This document shows, one piece after another, positions 41,927-51,753 of a stretch of DNA of 64,000 nucleotides. The stretch is from an uncultured bacterium. GTDB taxonomy: Bacteria > Elusimicrobiota > Elusimicrobia > Elusimicrobiales > Elusimicrobiaceae. The stretch covers positions 62,001 to 126,000 of the forward strand of contig CASFOP010000004.1 in NCBI GenBank assembly GCA_949296525.1, in the 5' to 3' direction. The position numbers and the translations under genes were made by a program. The notes under the pieces are model-generated. The model had not been told where the DNA came from and made no database searches. It saw nothing but the letters and a program-made list of their open reading frames with translations. The number at the start of each line of letters is the position of its first letter. Within the stretch, counting starts at the first letter, position 1.

Positions 41927-42508
41927 ATGAAACAAGTTATATCCTTTGTTCTAGTATGCCTGCTTACAGCCGGTTGTGCGGGAAGCGGCGTCCCCAATGC
42001 CAAATCCCAGCGTTACCGCGTCAGCACGGAGCGGGAACCGGCCTATTATTTGGGAACGGATGCCGAAGCAGTGGAGGATAGCTGTCCGGGCAATAATATT
42101 TTGAAACAATATAATTGTACGCGGGCTCAGGAAGACGGTTATGAATGTTTTGACGTATATCTGGCGCAGGGCAGCCCGATAAACAATCAGCGTTATACAT
42201 TGCTGCAGGAACGGGTGGAACGCCAGGCGGTCAGCCCCCAGCCGCAGTGCCCGGCTATGGAGGCTACTTGTGAATCCTTCCTGCAGGCATTAAATTATAA
42301 TTTGGAATTTTCCTGGTATTTGGTGAATTTCCCCACTTCTTCTTTTCCCCAGTGCCGTGAAACCTATGACTGCAAACGCATTGACTGTTACCTGCCGCCC
42401 GATCCGCAAAACGGGATTAAAGATTCAACTTTGGTGTCCTGTGTATATAAGCGGAACCAGCTGTTTTTTGTCGGTTCGGGAATCGTTTGCCGCAAAACGC
42501 CGCGCTGA
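41927..42508 (+). CDS. Cys-rich lipoprotein of unknown function
   Basis: 193 residues. The signal peptide ends with the lipobox LTAGC (Cys at about 17). Ten or more further Cys residues are spread through the mature part (for example SCPGNN, YNCTR, YECFDVY, CKRIDCY), enough for several disulfides. No family recognised. It is a probable envelope protein. The start is set by the lipobox distance and the promoter 7 bases upstream. It precedes the PAS mega-gene by about 100 bases; a hairpin CGGCCC-CGCA-GGGCCG lies between. Confidence 0.75.
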   Translation: MKQVISFVLVCLLTAGCAGSGVPNAKSQRYRVSTEREPAYYLGTDAEAVEDSCPGNNILKQYNCTRAQEDGYECFDVYLAQGSPINNQRYTLLQERVERQAVSPQPQCPAMEATCESFLQALNYNLEFSWYLVNFPTSSFPQCRETYDCKRIDCYLPPDPQNGIKDSTLVSCVYKRNQLFFVGSGIVCRKTPR

Positions 42509-42611: not shown

Positions 42612-45600
42612 ATGTCAGATAAAACTTTTTTCTTTTCCCAAAATGGTGAAGCACCCGATTTTTTGACCCAAATGGATGCCTGGCTGGAGTTGATGCCCTG
42701 TGCTGCCTGTTTAATAGATCAAACGGGTCTGATTTTGTTGGCCAATAAACAAACGGCGGCGGTGTCCGGTTTCCCCGCGGAAATGCTTAAAGGCAGCCAT
42801 ATTGCCAAATACGGGCTGACTCCGGCCGATGTGCAGAATCTGTTGAATGGAAAAGGAGATGCCTCCCTGCTTAAAGAAATGGTAACCAAAAACATGGAAG
42901 CGCTGTGTATGAATGTGCGCGCTTCCGCCGTCCCGGGGACTTCTTATATTATCCTTTGTTTTGACGCGGCCGCACAATATCATCAGGCGGTAAAGGATAA
43001 AAAGTTTTTTGAATCCCTTGTCCATTCTTATCCCTGTGCGGTGACGGTGCAGGATGGGCAGGGAAAATGTTTGGTGTGGAATGAAAAGGCCGAGAAAATG
43101 TTTTCTCTTTCTTCCGCCCAGGCGCTGGGCCGTCCTTTGTATGATATTTTGCCCTCCGCTCTTTGCTCTGCCCTGGAATTGTTGGACCGGGATGTAAAAG
43201 AGAAGAAACAGACCCGCGCTGTCAGGCAGATGAGTTTTAAAAACAACCGGGGGAATGAGCTGACGCTTTCCGTGGTCAAAGTGCCGTTATTGGATCCTGC
43301 CGGAGAAGTGAGGGATATTTTGACGATATATGAAAACATTACCGTCCGGCACGCCCAGGAAGAAGACTTGATACAGACGCGCAATTTGCTGCAGGCAATT
43401 TTGGATCATGTGCCATTGGGTATTTATACCCGTACGGCAGACGGCGTCATGACTTTTTTTAATAAGCAAAGCCAGGAAGTCCTTTCGGAAACGGAACCAA
43501 AATGCGTTAACACGCCCCACCCGAAACAGGATGCGGCCGTGGTGCGGATGTATGCGGAACGTGAGCGGAAAATCCTGGAAGAGGGCAAGTTGCGCGATTT
43601 CCCCAATGAAGTATATGTTGACCGTGACGGCCGCGAAAAAATGATACATATCATTAAGGTGCCCCTGCGCCATGCCGGCCCGGAACCGCTGGTGCTCAGC
43701 ATCGTGGAAGACGTTACCAAAAAACTGGAACAGGAAAGGGAAATAGTAACGGCCAATAATTTCCTCTCTTCTATTGTCAACAATGTGCCTATCGGGTTAT
43801 ACGTCCGCATGCGCAACGGAAAGCTGTTGCTGCGCAACAAAATGTGCGAGCAGATTTTTGGCGCAAACGAAAATGTATTTGACGAACAGGGATCCTTACC
43901 CCATGAAACAAAAGAACAGGTGCAGGGGTATTTAAGCCGGGAAACCCAGGTGCTCCAGTCCGGCAAGTTGTTAGACATTCCGGAAGAGCCTTACACCACC
44001 GGGACGGGGGAGCAGCGTCTGCTGCATTTGGTAAAAGTGCCGGTGTCTGACTCTGAAGGCAATCCTGAATTTGTCATTACCATGGTGGAAGACATTACCC
44101 GGAAAAAGGAACAGGAACGCAAATTGATGGAAGGGCAAAGCTTCCAACAGGCTATTTTGGACAATGCACCGATGGCCATTTACGCGCGCGGCGTGGATAT
44201 GTCCATGTTCTTTGTCAACAAAAGGGCGTTGGAATTATTCCCTTATGAAAAAATTGATGAGGAAGAAAATGATGATTACCGGGAACGGGAGGAAGAAGTG
44301 TTCCGTTCCGGTAAAATCCTGGATATTCCGGAAGAAGAGTATTTGCGCCGGGACGGAAAGAAAGTCTTGCTGCATTTGATCAAGGTGCCTGTGTATGACG
44401 ATGACGGCCGGCCGTTTATGATGCTCTCCCTTGCCGAAGACATTACCCAGAAAAAACAGCAGGAGCGCAAACTGGCGGAGGTGCAGAATATCCATCAGCT
44501 GGTGCTGTCCCACACGCCTATGGCTATTTATGCCTATGATGCAGGCCATCGGCTTTGTTTCTATAATAAAGCGGCCGATGTCATGTTCCCTGGGGAGATG
44601 TCTTCCGATCAGGATCAGTATGGATACAACAGCCGGGAAGATGAAATTTTTAAGGGCGGAAAAATCCTGGATATCCCGGAAGAAGAATATGTGCGCCGGG
44701 ACGGAAAGAAAGTCTTGCTGCATTTGGTAAAAGTGCCCGTATTCGCCCCGGACGGACAACCGTTGATGGTGCTGACCATTGCCGAAGATATTACCCAGCA
44801 GAAGCAGCAGGAAAAAGAAGTCCGCGATACGAGAAACTTTTTGCAAAATGTGGTAGACAATTTGCCGGTGGCTTTGTCCGTGAAACGCCGCAGCGGGGAA
44901 TATGTCGTATGGAATAAACGCAGTGAGGACGTATTCGGCGTGCCGGCCAAAGATGTCATCGGGAAAGACAATTACCGTACCGATATTACCAGGGAACAGG
45001 CCGAGTTTATGCAGGAAGCGGATGAACGTATTTTTCAAAGCCGTAAGGAGCTTAACATTGCCCAGGAATTGATTTCCACCCCTTCCGAAGGCGTAAAAAT
45101 TATGCATACGGTTAAAACGCCGTTGTATAAGCCCGATGGCACGCCGGATTATCTGCTCAGCGTGTCCGAAGATATTACGGCAAAGACCAAAATGGAAAAA
45201 CAAATCCGCGAGACGGGGGAGAAGAATTCCCTGTTGGTGGAAAACGCGCGGGAAGGCATTATTATCCTGGAAGATTACCAGGTGATTTATGCCAATGTGG
45301 CCGCCTGCAAATTACTGGGCTATGAATCGGCGGAAGAAATTGTGCGTAAGCCGTTTTTAAATTTCATTTCACCCGATCACCAGCCGTTTGCCACGGATAA
45401 GTATGAATCGGTGGTAAACGGGGTGGAGGGGGGCGAAGACCCCATCCAGCTGCATTTTGTCAAAAAGTCCGGCAGCCAGGCGGAAGTAGAAATGGCGGCC
45501 ATGGCTTCCAAATATTTAGGCCGGCGTATTGTCATCGTATTTTTGCGGGACGTTACGGCGTTCAACAAGTCCATGCGGGAAGTGCGCGGTGAGCGGGAGA

Positions 45601-47975
45601 AGTTCAAAAATGTGTTTGAAAAGGGCCTCCTGCCCGCATTTATCCTTAATCACAAAGGATATATCAACGTCATGAACCGTGCGGCCAGGGATTTGTTCCA
45701 CTTTACGGAGGAGGACCGCCACTTCTACCGCAATGTGTACATCCGCCCCGCGCTGACCCTGCAAACCAGGCGCCATCTGTCACGCGGGGAAAGCGCACAG
45801 ATGGATTATGTGTTTGACTTTGATAAAGCCGCAGCCAAGTTCCCGGGCCGTATTCACGGAGAGGGGAAAATGTTGTTGCATGTGTCGCTGGAGCCTTTTA
45901 ACCGGCGTGACGCCAAAGACGGGACGGTGGAGGCCGATTATTTGGTGACGCTGGATCGCCGGGAACGGGGGGGCACTCCTCCTCCGTCTGTACCCTTGGC
46001 AGGCATTGCAAAAAAAGTGCGTAAGCCGCAGCCGCCGTGCGCCGTATTGCTGCCCAATACCCAGCCGTATGCAGTGTGTTCTTCCCAGTTTAAAATCATT
46101 TCCTGCAATGATTTATTCTGCGCGCTAAGCCAACATGAACGGGAGGAACTGACAGGACAGGAACTTGTCCGTTTGTTTGCGGCGGAAAGTGCTTCTTTGT
46201 TTAAAGAGGATTTGGAAAAATTGAAATCCACCGGAGAACTGGAAAACAGGGAATACCGTTTGTGCCTGGCCAGCGGGCTGGAAACGACCCCTGTCCGCCT
46301 GTGCGCCCTGCGCAACCGGGACGGGAATTATGTGTTTATTTTCCACAACCTGGCCCTGCAAAAACAATTGATGAATTTGCTGCAGGAACGTTCGGCCCAG
46401 TTAAACGCTTTGCTGGATGCAACTGACGGGGCCGTGTTTTCCGTGCAGTATGAAGACGGCAAGCTGGGCCGGGTCGAACGCGCCAATAAATTCTTTTCCC
46501 GCTTTATCGGCTATTCCCGGGAGGAACTGACATCCGTGCCTTTTGAGCGGTTATTTACGGCGCCGGATGGAAAGAATTCCGCCGAAGTGAAAGAGAAATT
46601 CGGCCGCGCCGTGCAAAATTTGCAGGCGTCCGGACGGGCCAATCTGGCGGCCTTGCTTTTTACCAAGGACGGCAAACCTATTGAAACGGCCGTTACGCTG
46701 ACGGAGCTGGATATCCCCGGCCAAAATGTGGTTTTGGCCGTGGTCACGGATTTGTCTGATTTGCTGGAACGCCTGTCCCGCAATTCCCGTGCGGCGCTGG
46801 AGCTGAGCAGTGTGCGCCAATCTTTGCCTGGGATTTATCTGAAGACTAATTTAGACGGCCGGGTGCTGGAAGTAAGTGCCAATTTGCCCTATCTGAGCCA
46901 GGCGCAGGCCCAGGATATGTTTTTGGATAAGCTGCCCAAGGAATATTGGCCGGAAGAAGTGGCTTCCAAAGAATTGTTTGCCGTCAAGGAATCCGCCGGT
47001 GTGCATATTAACACTACCTTTGATTTTGAATGGGAGTTTGCCGGCCGCAAACGGTTTTTGGAAGCCGTTTGCATGCCTATCATCGGGCGGGAAGAAGTGG
47101 TGATTTGGCTCAGGGATGCCACGGAACGCCGCCTGCATGAAGAACATATTCAGGAATTGTATTCCATCAGCAATGAAAATAATTCCACTATTACGCAGCA
47201 GGTGGACCGGATTTTGGATTTCGGTAAAAAAATATTCAAATCGGATGTGGGTATAGTGTTGCGTTTTCGCGACTCCAACCCCGATGAACTGACCGTTATC
47301 TATTCCACGCCCAGTCCGTTTAATATTGAACGTTATATGGTATTCCCGTTGGAAGAATGCCTGTTTGACGTGCGCGATGACAATGTGGTCGTGTTTCCGG
47401 ATTTGTCCAATACCAACTGCAAACGCTGCCTGCATAAAGAAAAAAATTTTGGCTCCCTGATTGCCGCTCCGCTGTATGTAGGCGGCAAGGTGGCCGGGGT
47501 GCTGTGTTTTGCCGCCCGGGCTTCCAAAACGCATTTTGAAGAAGGGGCTGAAGAGCTAATTGGCATCATGTCGCGAATCCTGAGCCTGCGCATAGAGCTG
47601 CGTGAAGCCAGTAAAACCCTGGGGGAAACCTCGCAGAGTTTTATCCGTACGCTGGAATACCTTAACTCTCCCGCCGTGGTGCTGGATTTGTACCACCGCG
47701 TGCGTTATGCCAACGATGTATTCCTGGGGTTTACGGGGCGTCAGCCGCGGAATGTGGAAAACCGGGAGTTTTTTGATGAGTTTGTCCGCAATCCGCACAG
47801 CAGCCGCCACATGTTTGACAGCTATGCCCGCGGTGCCGTGGGCAATGCTTTCCAGGTGCGTTTGGAACAAGTGGATGACAGCGGAAAATATTCCCCGGTT
47901 CAGTGGGATGTGTTTTTGATGAAAGACATAAAAGGTGAAGTGGAAGGGTACGGCCTGATTGGCGTGCCGCAGAAA
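42612..47975 (+). CDS. 1788-residue multi-PAS/GAF protein without output domain
   Basis: Soluble, no signal peptide or membrane helix. By eye there are about thirteen PAS-like modules at residues near 26, 133, 259, 384, 511, 626, 743, 873, 998, 1151, 1265, 1400 and 1677, and one GAF domain at about 1517-1663. Modules end in the PAC-type strand LxxVEDITxKKxQE and are joined by short coiled helices. Modules 5 and 6 are near-identical tandem copies (period 348 bases). No histidine kinase, GGDEF, EAL, HTH, STAS or phosphatase domain is seen; the protein ends inside a PAS fold (GYGLIGVPQK). It may sense ligands and signal through protein contacts. Start at 42612 has GAGGA upstream. The stop TAA follows at 47976-47978. 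Confidence 0.9.
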
Positions 47976-47978
47976 TAA

Positions 47979-50191: not shown

Positions 50192-50242
50192 GAATATTGT
50201 AAAAATCCGTAAATGTCTTATACTATAAACATCGGAGCATTT

Positions 50243-50719
50243 ATGAAAATATTTCTTTCCGGCAGAAAGGCCGGGTTTACATTGGTGGAATTATTGGTGG
50301 TTGTCATGATTTTGGGTATATTGTCAGCCATTGCTTTGCCTCAGTACCGCCGCTCGGTGGAGCGTGCGCGTGTGGCCGAGGCACAGACCCTGTTGCGTTC
50401 CATTTATGATGCCTGTGAACGGCTGGCTTGGGAAAACAATATGTCCAGCTGCGAGGATGCCGTCAAAAACGATGCGGTAAATTTCCGTAAACTGGATATT
50501 ACGGTAAAAGGGACTTTTAACAGCAATGCCAGCACTTTGACGACGGAAAATTTTCATTATGAATTCGGCGGGAATACGGTGTGGGCCCAGGCCCAACGGG
50601 GGGATTATGTGGGGGCCATTATTACATTTGACGGCCGGCAGTTTACCTGCACGGATACCATCCATCCCGCCCCCAACGCCTGCACGGTATGGGGTGCGGC
50701 CAACTGGAACGAGGAATAA
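50243..50719 (+). CDS. Type IV prepilin-like protein 1
   Basis: 158 residues. Class III signal: MKIFLSGRKAG cut before FTLVELLVVVMILG, with Glu at +5. The hydrophobic helix is followed by LPQYRRSVERARVAEAQ, then a beta-rich head with Cys pairs. Pilins or pseudopilins assemble into fibres after PilD-type cleavage and methylation. The start at 50243 has CGGAG eight bases upstream. First of three adjacent intact prepilin genes on this strand. Confidence 0.9.
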   Translation: MKIFLSGRKAGFTLVELLVVVMILGILSAIALPQYRRSVERARVAEAQTLLRSIYDACERLAWENNMSSCEDAVKNDAVNFRKLDITVKGTFNSNASTLTTENFHYEFGGNTVWAQAQRGDYVGAIITFDGRQFTCTDTIHPAPNACTVWGAANWNEE

Positions 50720-50724
50720 ACGTT

Positions 50725-51204
50725 ATGAAAAAATATATCAATGATATTTTGCCGTGCCCGGGCCGGGGGTTTACGTTAATTGAGCTGATGGCCGTGGTGA
50801 TGATTATAGGTGTTTTGTCATCCATTGCATTGCCGCAGTACCGCCGGGTGGTGGAAAGGAGCAAATTCACCAAGGCGCAGGTTATGGCCAAGTCCATGTA
50901 TGATTCCTGCCAGCGCCTGGTGGCGGAATGGGGGGTGGACAATTATACGGACTTATCGACCGACGTGCGTAAGATTTCCCGCCTGGATATCGGGGACGAG
51001 GCGGATTTGCCTGCCGGTTTTTCCGTATCGGACAACTCAATTGTCGGGGCCGGTTTTGTATATACGCTGGGCAGCAATTGCGTAGTGAATGTCGAGAAAA
51101 CATCGGGCAATTATGCGGGCGTTACCATGAATTATAACGGGCTGGCATTTTATGATTGTTCGGATGACGGTTCCGGTGCGTGTGATATTTACGGGCTGGA
51201 TTGA
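50725..51204 (+). CDS. Type IV prepilin-like protein 2
   Basis: 159 residues. Leader MKKYINDILPCPGRG before FTLIELMAVVMIIG; the leader is longer and carries a Cys. LPQYRRVVERSKFTKAQ follows the helix. The head has SDNSIVGAGFVYTLG and a Cys-containing end (CSDDGSGACDIYGLD). GAGGA upstream sits across the stop of prepilin 1, six bases before. The head shares little with prepilin 1, so the genes are paralogs that have diverged rather than recent copies. Confidence 0.9.
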   Translation: MKKYINDILPCPGRGFTLIELMAVVMIIGVLSSIALPQYRRVVERSKFTKAQVMAKSMYDSCQRLVAEWGVDNYTDLSTDVRKISRLDIGDEADLPAGFSVSDNSIVGAGFVYTLGSNCVVNVEKTSGNYAGVTMNYNGLAFYDCSDDGSGACDIYGLD

Positions 51205-51213
51205 GGAAACGGT

Positions 51214-51753
51214 ATGAAAAAATATATATTATGCAAAAAAGTCTGGGCCTGCAAAGACGGCGGTTTTACGCTGATGGAAATTTTGGTGGCGGTGTTAATT
51301 CTGACCATTTTAATTACTATGGCCGTGCCTATGTATGAGCGCACGGTGGAAAAATCCCGCCTGGCGGAAGTCAGTACCCTGCTCAAGCGTATATCCGAGT
51401 CAAAACTGCGCACCATGGACAGCCAGAACATCACTAACTACTACACATCCGCTTTCGGGATGGACGAGCTGGATATAACCGTTCCATCTAGTGATGATTT
51501 TTATTACGGTTTATATCCTGAGTCGTACTCCAATGCCGTCTGCGCACGCCGCCTGCGCGGGGATAATGCGGGGACGGTATTCCTCTACCTGGGGGAAGCG
51601 GCGCCGGATTATTGCTATACGGGCGGGAAAGGCACCGCCATATGTACCGAGTATCTTTCCAGCGGCCGCAGACTGTTCTGCCAAAATGCTAGCGGCAAAT
51701 CCACCTGTGAAAGCTATGGGCTGGACAGTTATACCACAGGTTCCTGTCAGTGA
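51214..51753 (+). CDS. Type IV prepilin-like protein 3
   Basis: 179 residues. Leader MKKYILCKKVWACKDGG before FTLMEILVAVLILT; two Cys in a long basic leader. After the helix the usual PQYRR is PMYERTVEKSRLAEV. The C-terminal head has several Cys (VCARRL, DYCYTGGKGTAIC, LFCQNASGKSTC). Nine bases after prepilin 2. Ends before a strong terminator. Confidence 0.9.
   Translation: MKKYILCKKVWACKDGGFTLMEILVAVLILTILITMAVPMYERTVEKSRLAEVSTLLKRISESKLRTMDSQNITNYYTSAFGMDELDITVPSSDDFYYGLYPESYSNAVCARRLRGDNAGTVFLYLGEAAPDYCYTGGKGTAICTEYLSSGRRLFCQNASGKSTCESYGLDSYTTGSCQ

What the first reader, a model, noticed from the sequence alone, without database searches (positions are those of the whole stretch)
42612..47975. 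A 1788-residue PAS array with no output domain
About thirteen PAS modules and one GAF domain fill the whole protein, with no kinase, cyclase, phosphodiesterase or DNA-binding part and no separate partner gene beside it. The modules are different enough to bind different ligands. It may be a soluble sensor hub or scaffold of an undescribed type.
Basis: partly seen in the sequence, partly recalled or inferred. Interest (0 to 1): 0.75.

Follow-up and report, generated by a model that had tools for sequence, protein, structure and literature searches.

The report
Giant PAS sensor lacking output domain
A small gut bacterium and nearly all its relatives keep one huge protein made only of sensor modules, with no part that could act on a signal, so it most likely passes what it senses to separate signalling enzymes, some of which have lost their own sensors.

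Summary
The gene (42612-47978) encodes 1788 residues: 13 PAS modules and one GAF domain, with no enzymatic or DNA-binding domain; two AlphaFold models cover it and leave no room for a hidden one. It is neither a frameshift nor an oddity of one genome. The array, or a remnant of it, is found in 86 of 90 genomes of this family (Elusimicrobiaceae), including the isolate Elusimicrobium minutum, and full-length copies end at the same final PAS. A GTDB scan found none outside the family. The 11-13 modules vary through tandem copying around PAS5/6. The most conserved stretch, also spared by natural deletions, is PAS7 with the helix behind it, which I take as the likely output interface. A new finding bears on mechanism: a GAF-PAS histidine kinase conserved across the order lost its sensor in the genera that carry the array, leaving a bare 253-residue kinase. 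A second sensor-less kinase lies 115 bp upstream of the array in one relative. I therefore favour an in-trans sensory hub for sensor-less kinases, but this is inferred: one genus keeps the array and has cleanly deleted the bare kinase. New variant of a known kind.

The parts
42612..47978 (+). PAS-array gene, 1788 aa, stop included
   Evidence: orthologs start at the same ATG
42612..42659 (+). N-terminal peptide (M-x-x-K-x-F-S-F-F-S-K in the genus), conserved short hydrophobic motif; amphipathic helix in other genera; membrane contact is inferred
42660..42977 (+). PAS1 (residues 17-122)
   Evidence: model
42978..43379 (+). PAS2 with linker (123-256)
43380..43754 (+). PAS3 with linker (257-381)
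43755..44135 (+). PAS4 with linker (382-508)
44136..44831 (+). PAS5 and PAS6 (509-740), tandem copies 53% identical; region of copy-number change (11-13 PAS in relatives)
44832..45173 (+). PAS7 (741-854), most conserved module
45174..45251 (+). PAS7-PAS8 linker helix (855-880, AKTKMEKQIRETGEKNSLLVENARE), most conserved linker yet low pLDDT in the monomer model; candidate output interface
   Evidence: function inferred
45252..45959 (+). PAS8 and PAS9 (881-1116)
45960..46064 (+). Disordered linker (about 1117-1151)
46065..47165 (+). PAS10, PAS11, PAS12 (about 1152-1518)
47166..47633 (+). GAF domain and long helix (1519-1674); C1583, C1603, C1606 and H1608 conserved in the genus, possible metal or redox site (inferred)
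47634..47975 (+). PAS13 (1675-1788), terminal module; PYP-like by HMM but far below cut-off and without Cys
41927..42508 (+). Small lipoprotein gene (lipobox LTAGC), adjacent to the array in 45 of 51 genus loci, same-strand or divergent; no Pfam match

Best explanation
A stand-alone multi-input sensor of a reduced, gut-associated lineage. Each PAS or GAF module can bind a small molecule or report redox state; helical linkers couple neighbouring modules along a probable parallel dimer; the integrated state is read at the PAS7-PAS9 core, most likely by histidine kinases that have no sensor of their own (the 253-aa bare HisKA-HATPase kinase and/or the 320-aa membrane-coil kinase). Shown: architecture, absence of output domain, conservation, natural deletions, loss of the sensor by the kinase. 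Inferred: ligands, dimerisation, docking site and the kinase partnership.
For: Array or remnant in 86 of 90 family genomes, none found outside the family. PAS7 and its linker score 0.79/0.84 in conservation against a mean of 0.54 for 25-residue windows. Natural variants: G058 ends after PAS9, G065 lacks PAS10-12 and GAF, G105 lacks PAS2-6; PAS7-PAS9 is common to all three. An order-wide GAF-PAS-HisKA-HATPase kinase (about 510-575 aa in family f2 and in genera g12 and g13, which lack the array) has lost its GAF-PAS in genera g1, g11 and g14, which carry the array. Orthology rests on a tree (100/99 for the joint clade) and the same upstream secreted-protein gene. In genome G092 (JAQXJI010000030.1, SUG1247) the sensor-less kinase of the RsmI-Sua5 operon lies 115 bp upstream of the array, same strand. 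The array-bearing genomes of each lineage inspected in detail keep at least one of the two sensor-less kinases.
Against: No kinase is next to the array in the window genome. In G105 (genus g15) the bare kinase is cleanly deleted while its flanking genes and the array remain. A subclade of g14 (G088, G091, G101) has no detectable 320-aa kinase. The 320-aa kinase is order-wide and also occurs without any array. The kinase's lost GAF-PAS is not specifically similar to the array's GAF-PAS13. Only two genomes represent the array-less genera of the family. No interaction data exist.
Confidence: 0.42

Rival explanations
1. The array is a scaffold or hub for partners other than the sensor-less kinases, such as the orphan receiver or receiver-GGDEF proteins, the kinase HK369 that has its own PAS, or non-two-component proteins; output is by binding alone.
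For: PAS modules often bind proteins (general knowledge). Orphan receivers and one receiver-GGDEF protein are conserved in the genome. The bare kinase is dispensable in G105.
Against: No conserved neighbour encodes such a partner; none was picked out by phylogenetic pattern.
Confidence: 0.28
2. The bare kinase lost its sensor because it gained a new input from the overlapping 173-aa helical protein and the AI-2E permease downstream; the array is unrelated to it.
For: The 173-aa gene abuts or overlaps the kinase gene and AI-2E follows in the array-bearing genera; AI-2E had no match in G085, G086, G027 or G033.
Against: In G105 the 173-aa gene and AI-2E persist without the kinase, so they have a role of their own. 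Does not explain what the array does.
Confidence: 0.2
3. The array is regulated together with, and works for, the adjacent lipoprotein and envelope proteins, for example as a cytosolic regulator of surface proteins.
For: Lipoprotein adjacent in 45 of 51 genus loci through a change of strand and of all other neighbours; secreted-protein genes border the array in g11, g14 and part of g1.
Against: The lipoprotein is absent beside the array in the other genera; cytosolic array and exported neighbours cannot touch directly.
Confidence: 0.12
4. Degenerate remnant of a multi-PAS kinase that lost its catalytic part and has no function.
For: Output domain missing; a few genomes carry truncated arrays.
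Against: Long open frames kept in 86 of 90 genomes with invariant segments, no relic of a kinase downstream in any ortholog.
Confidence: 0.03

Closest known systems
Multi-PAS histidine kinases (for example cyanobacterial kinases with up to 19 PAS domains, PMC10468136)
   Same: Long tandem PAS arrays.
   Different: Those are kinases; here no kinase domain exists in any ortholog seen.
Ortholog in Elusimicrobium minutum Pei191
   Different: 1543 aa, and its GAF lacks the CxxCxH motif; no functional study was found in the held library.
Bacteriophytochromes ending in a PAS rather than a kinase (XccBphP 5akp; RpBphP1, 4gw9), hits
   Same: Sensor whose terminal module is a PAS; output thought to be a protein contact (general knowledge).
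   Different: They have a PAS-GAF-PHY bilin core; here 13 PAS, no PHY, no bilin evidence.
NifL acting in trans on NifA (9qq6, hit)
   Same: PAS protein that controls a separate partner by binding.
   Different: NifL has a GHKL part and a dedicated partner gene; the array has neither.
PpsR/CrtJ (4hh2)
   Same: Row of PAS domains joined by long helices.
   Different: PpsR has an HTH; the array has no DNA-binding domain.

Membership tests
PAS domain superfamily | PAS fold and PAS HMM matches | tested here: met
   PAS_4 E 9.5e-77; TIGR00229 320.8 bits, 11 stretches; 13 PAS folds in the models
GAF domain | GAF HMM match over cut-off | tested here: met
   PF01590 32 bits against cut-off 22.4 at 1531-1660
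PAS histidine kinase | HisKA or HisKA_3 plus HATPase_c in the same protein | tested here: not met
   No such domain match or fold; none in orthologs by length and C-terminus
PAS diguanylate cyclase, phosphodiesterase or chemoreceptor | GGDEF, EAL, HD-GYP or MCP domain | tested here: not met
PpsR-type PAS-HTH regulator | C-terminal HTH and family cut-off | tested here: not met
   38.8 bits against cut-off 275; protein ends in PAS13
Photoactive yellow protein (PAS13 only) | TIGR02373 cut-off and chromophore Cys | tested here: not met
   27.5 bits against cut-off 143; no Cys in residues 1686-1788 (sequence)
LOV, haem or flavin PAS | Cofactor bound in a module | not testable with these tools
   Needs purified protein and spectra
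In-trans sensor of sensor-less kinases (working hypothesis) | Physical contact with a kinase and change of its activity | not testable with these tools
   Only genomic evidence here
In-trans sensor of sensor-less kinases (working hypothesis) | Strict co-occurrence of the array with the 253-aa kinase | tested here: not met
   G105 has the array but a clean deletion of the kinase

The most novel reading that the evidence does not exclude
A split sensory system: during genome reduction kinases shed their own sensors and one giant shared PAS array became a pluggable multi-input sensor for several sensor-less kinases, with PAS7 and its linker as the common plug and tandem PAS copying as a way to add inputs.
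Probability: 0.25. Interest if true: 0.8.

Novelty: new variant of a known kind. Interest (0 to 1): 0.55.

Why it matters
Bacterial sensors are normally fused to what they control. A conserved 13-PAS protein without output, in a lineage where a kinase has lost its fused sensor, makes the question of whether sensing can be pooled into one shared protein directly testable, and E. minutum is a cultured isolate that carries both the array and the bare kinase.

Tried and rejected
Hidden catalytic domain: rejected by Pfam, NCBIfam, two AlphaFold models and PDB fold search. Frameshift at 47975: rejected, orthologs end alike. Origin of the array's GAF-PAS13 from the kinase's lost GAF-PAS: not supported, weak scattered hits only. 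The 320-aa kinase as an array-specific partner: weakened, it is order-wide and sensor-less without arrays too. PAS7 as a relic of a particular kinase: its nearest relatives in f2 are ordinary PAS in various signalling proteins. One regular expression script gave no result and was replaced. Paper searches found no study of this protein.

Full report
CHECK. The open frame 42612-47978 encodes 1788 residues, starting at an ATG behind GAGGAA. Pfam and NCBIfam show only PAS and GAF domains. Two AlphaFold models, residues 1-738 and 739-1788, account for the protein as 13 PAS and one GAF joined by helices, with one short disordered linker. Fold searches listed only PAS, LOV and phytochrome-type proteins. 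The finding is confirmed and is far from chance.

CONSERVATION. The gene is single copy in its genome. Orthologs occur in all 24 other genomes of the genus first sampled and in 85 of 90 family genomes, across genera coded g1, g11, g14 and g15; a profile search then found a truncated copy in G058, making 86 of 90, while G060 and G097 (66% and 64% complete) and G085 and G086 (genera g12, g13) lack it. A scan of GTDB genomes gave full-length matches only in Elusimicrobia records, with titles naming Candidatus Avelusimicrobium and gut or rumen samples, and generic PAS matches elsewhere. That scan rests on two short peptide patterns, so distant arrays could be missed. G083 is E. minutum Pei191 by exact genome size (1,643,562 bp; PMC2613244).

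ANATOMY. Orthologs differ in the number of PAS modules before PAS7, giving 11, 12 or 13 in the genus; PAS5 and PAS6 are 53% identical to each other. PAS7 and the helix behind it are the most conserved part (0.79 and 0.84 against a window mean of 0.54), yet that helix has low confidence in the monomer model, as expected for a dimer or partner contact; this is inference. Natural deletions leave PAS7-PAS9 in common: G058 stops after PAS9, G065 lacks PAS10-12 and GAF, G105 lacks PAS2-6. The GAF holds C1583, C1603, C1606 and H1608, invariant in the genus members aligned but absent in E. minutum and in G105, so any metal or redox role is not universal. A short hydrophobic N-terminal peptide (FSFFSK) is kept in the genus, with amphipathic stretches in its place elsewhere.

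NEIGHBOURS. In the genus a small lipoprotein gene borders the array in 45 of 51 loci, on the same or the opposite strand, while other neighbours change. Outside the genus the neighbours are secreted proteins, an FKBP-type isomerase or glutamate dehydrogenase. One relative, G092, has the sensor-less kinase of the RsmI-Sua5 operon 115 bp upstream on the same strand. With about 70 loci examined, one such case could be chance.

CANDIDATE PARTNERS. The window genome holds about six histidine kinases. Two have no sensor domain: a 320-aa kinase with a membrane segment and a coil, and a 253-aa kinase that is only HisKA and HATPase. The 253-aa kinase is the ortholog of a GAF-PAS-HisKA-HATPase kinase found across the order: the tree joins them with 100/99 support, and the same secreted-protein gene lies upstream in all. 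In f2 and in g12 and g13 the match runs from the first residues of the kinase; in g1, g11 and g14 it starts at about residue 276-296, so the GAF-PAS is gone. Sensor loss thus falls in the genera that carry the array. In g15 (G105) the kinase itself is cleanly missing between its neighbours while the array persists. The 320-aa kinase is order-wide, with or without arrays, and is missing from a g14 subclade.

READING. The best-supported reading is a stand-alone sensory hub that acts in trans, with sensor-less kinases as leading partner candidates (0.42). The partnership is not shown. Rivals are a scaffold for other partners (0.28), a new input of the kinase by its overlapping 173-aa neighbour and AI-2E permease (0.2), a role tied to the envelope neighbours (0.12), and a dead remnant (0.03).

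NOVELTY. PAS arrays of this size are known in kinases (up to 19 PAS, PMC10468136). Sensors that end in a PAS and act by contact are known from bacteriophytochromes and NifL (general knowledge; structural hits). What is new is a family-wide conserved giant array with no output and the matching loss of a kinase sensor. I rate it a new variant of a known kind.

Noticed in passing
L040:1567-2328 and L193: Order-wide GAF-PAS histidine kinase reduced to a bare 253-aa kinase in the array-bearing genera, and cleanly deleted in G105 between its neighbours.
   Followed up: yes
L040:2325-2846: A 173-aa helical protein without Pfam match overlaps the bare kinase gene and is followed by an AI-2E family permease; both persist where the kinase is lost.
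   Followed up: partly
L040:658-1554: A roughly 290-aa secreted protein without Pfam match sits directly upstream of the GAF-PAS kinase or its bare form across the order.
   Followed up: partly
L039:2454-3416: Sensor-less membrane-coil histidine kinase in an RsmI-Sua5 operon, found across the order.
   Followed up: partly
window 50213-51753: Three tandem type IV pilin-like genes close to the array, also beside it in related genomes.
   Followed up: no
L041:1715-2641: Receiver-GGDEF protein with a GGDDF motif in place of GG(D/E)EF, conserved in the genus.
   Followed up: no
L052, L055, L056, L117, L118, L130: Secreted proteins with a shared start motif (such as ALSSPYG or VLSSPVG after the signal peptide) lie downstream of the array in several lineages.
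   Followed up: no
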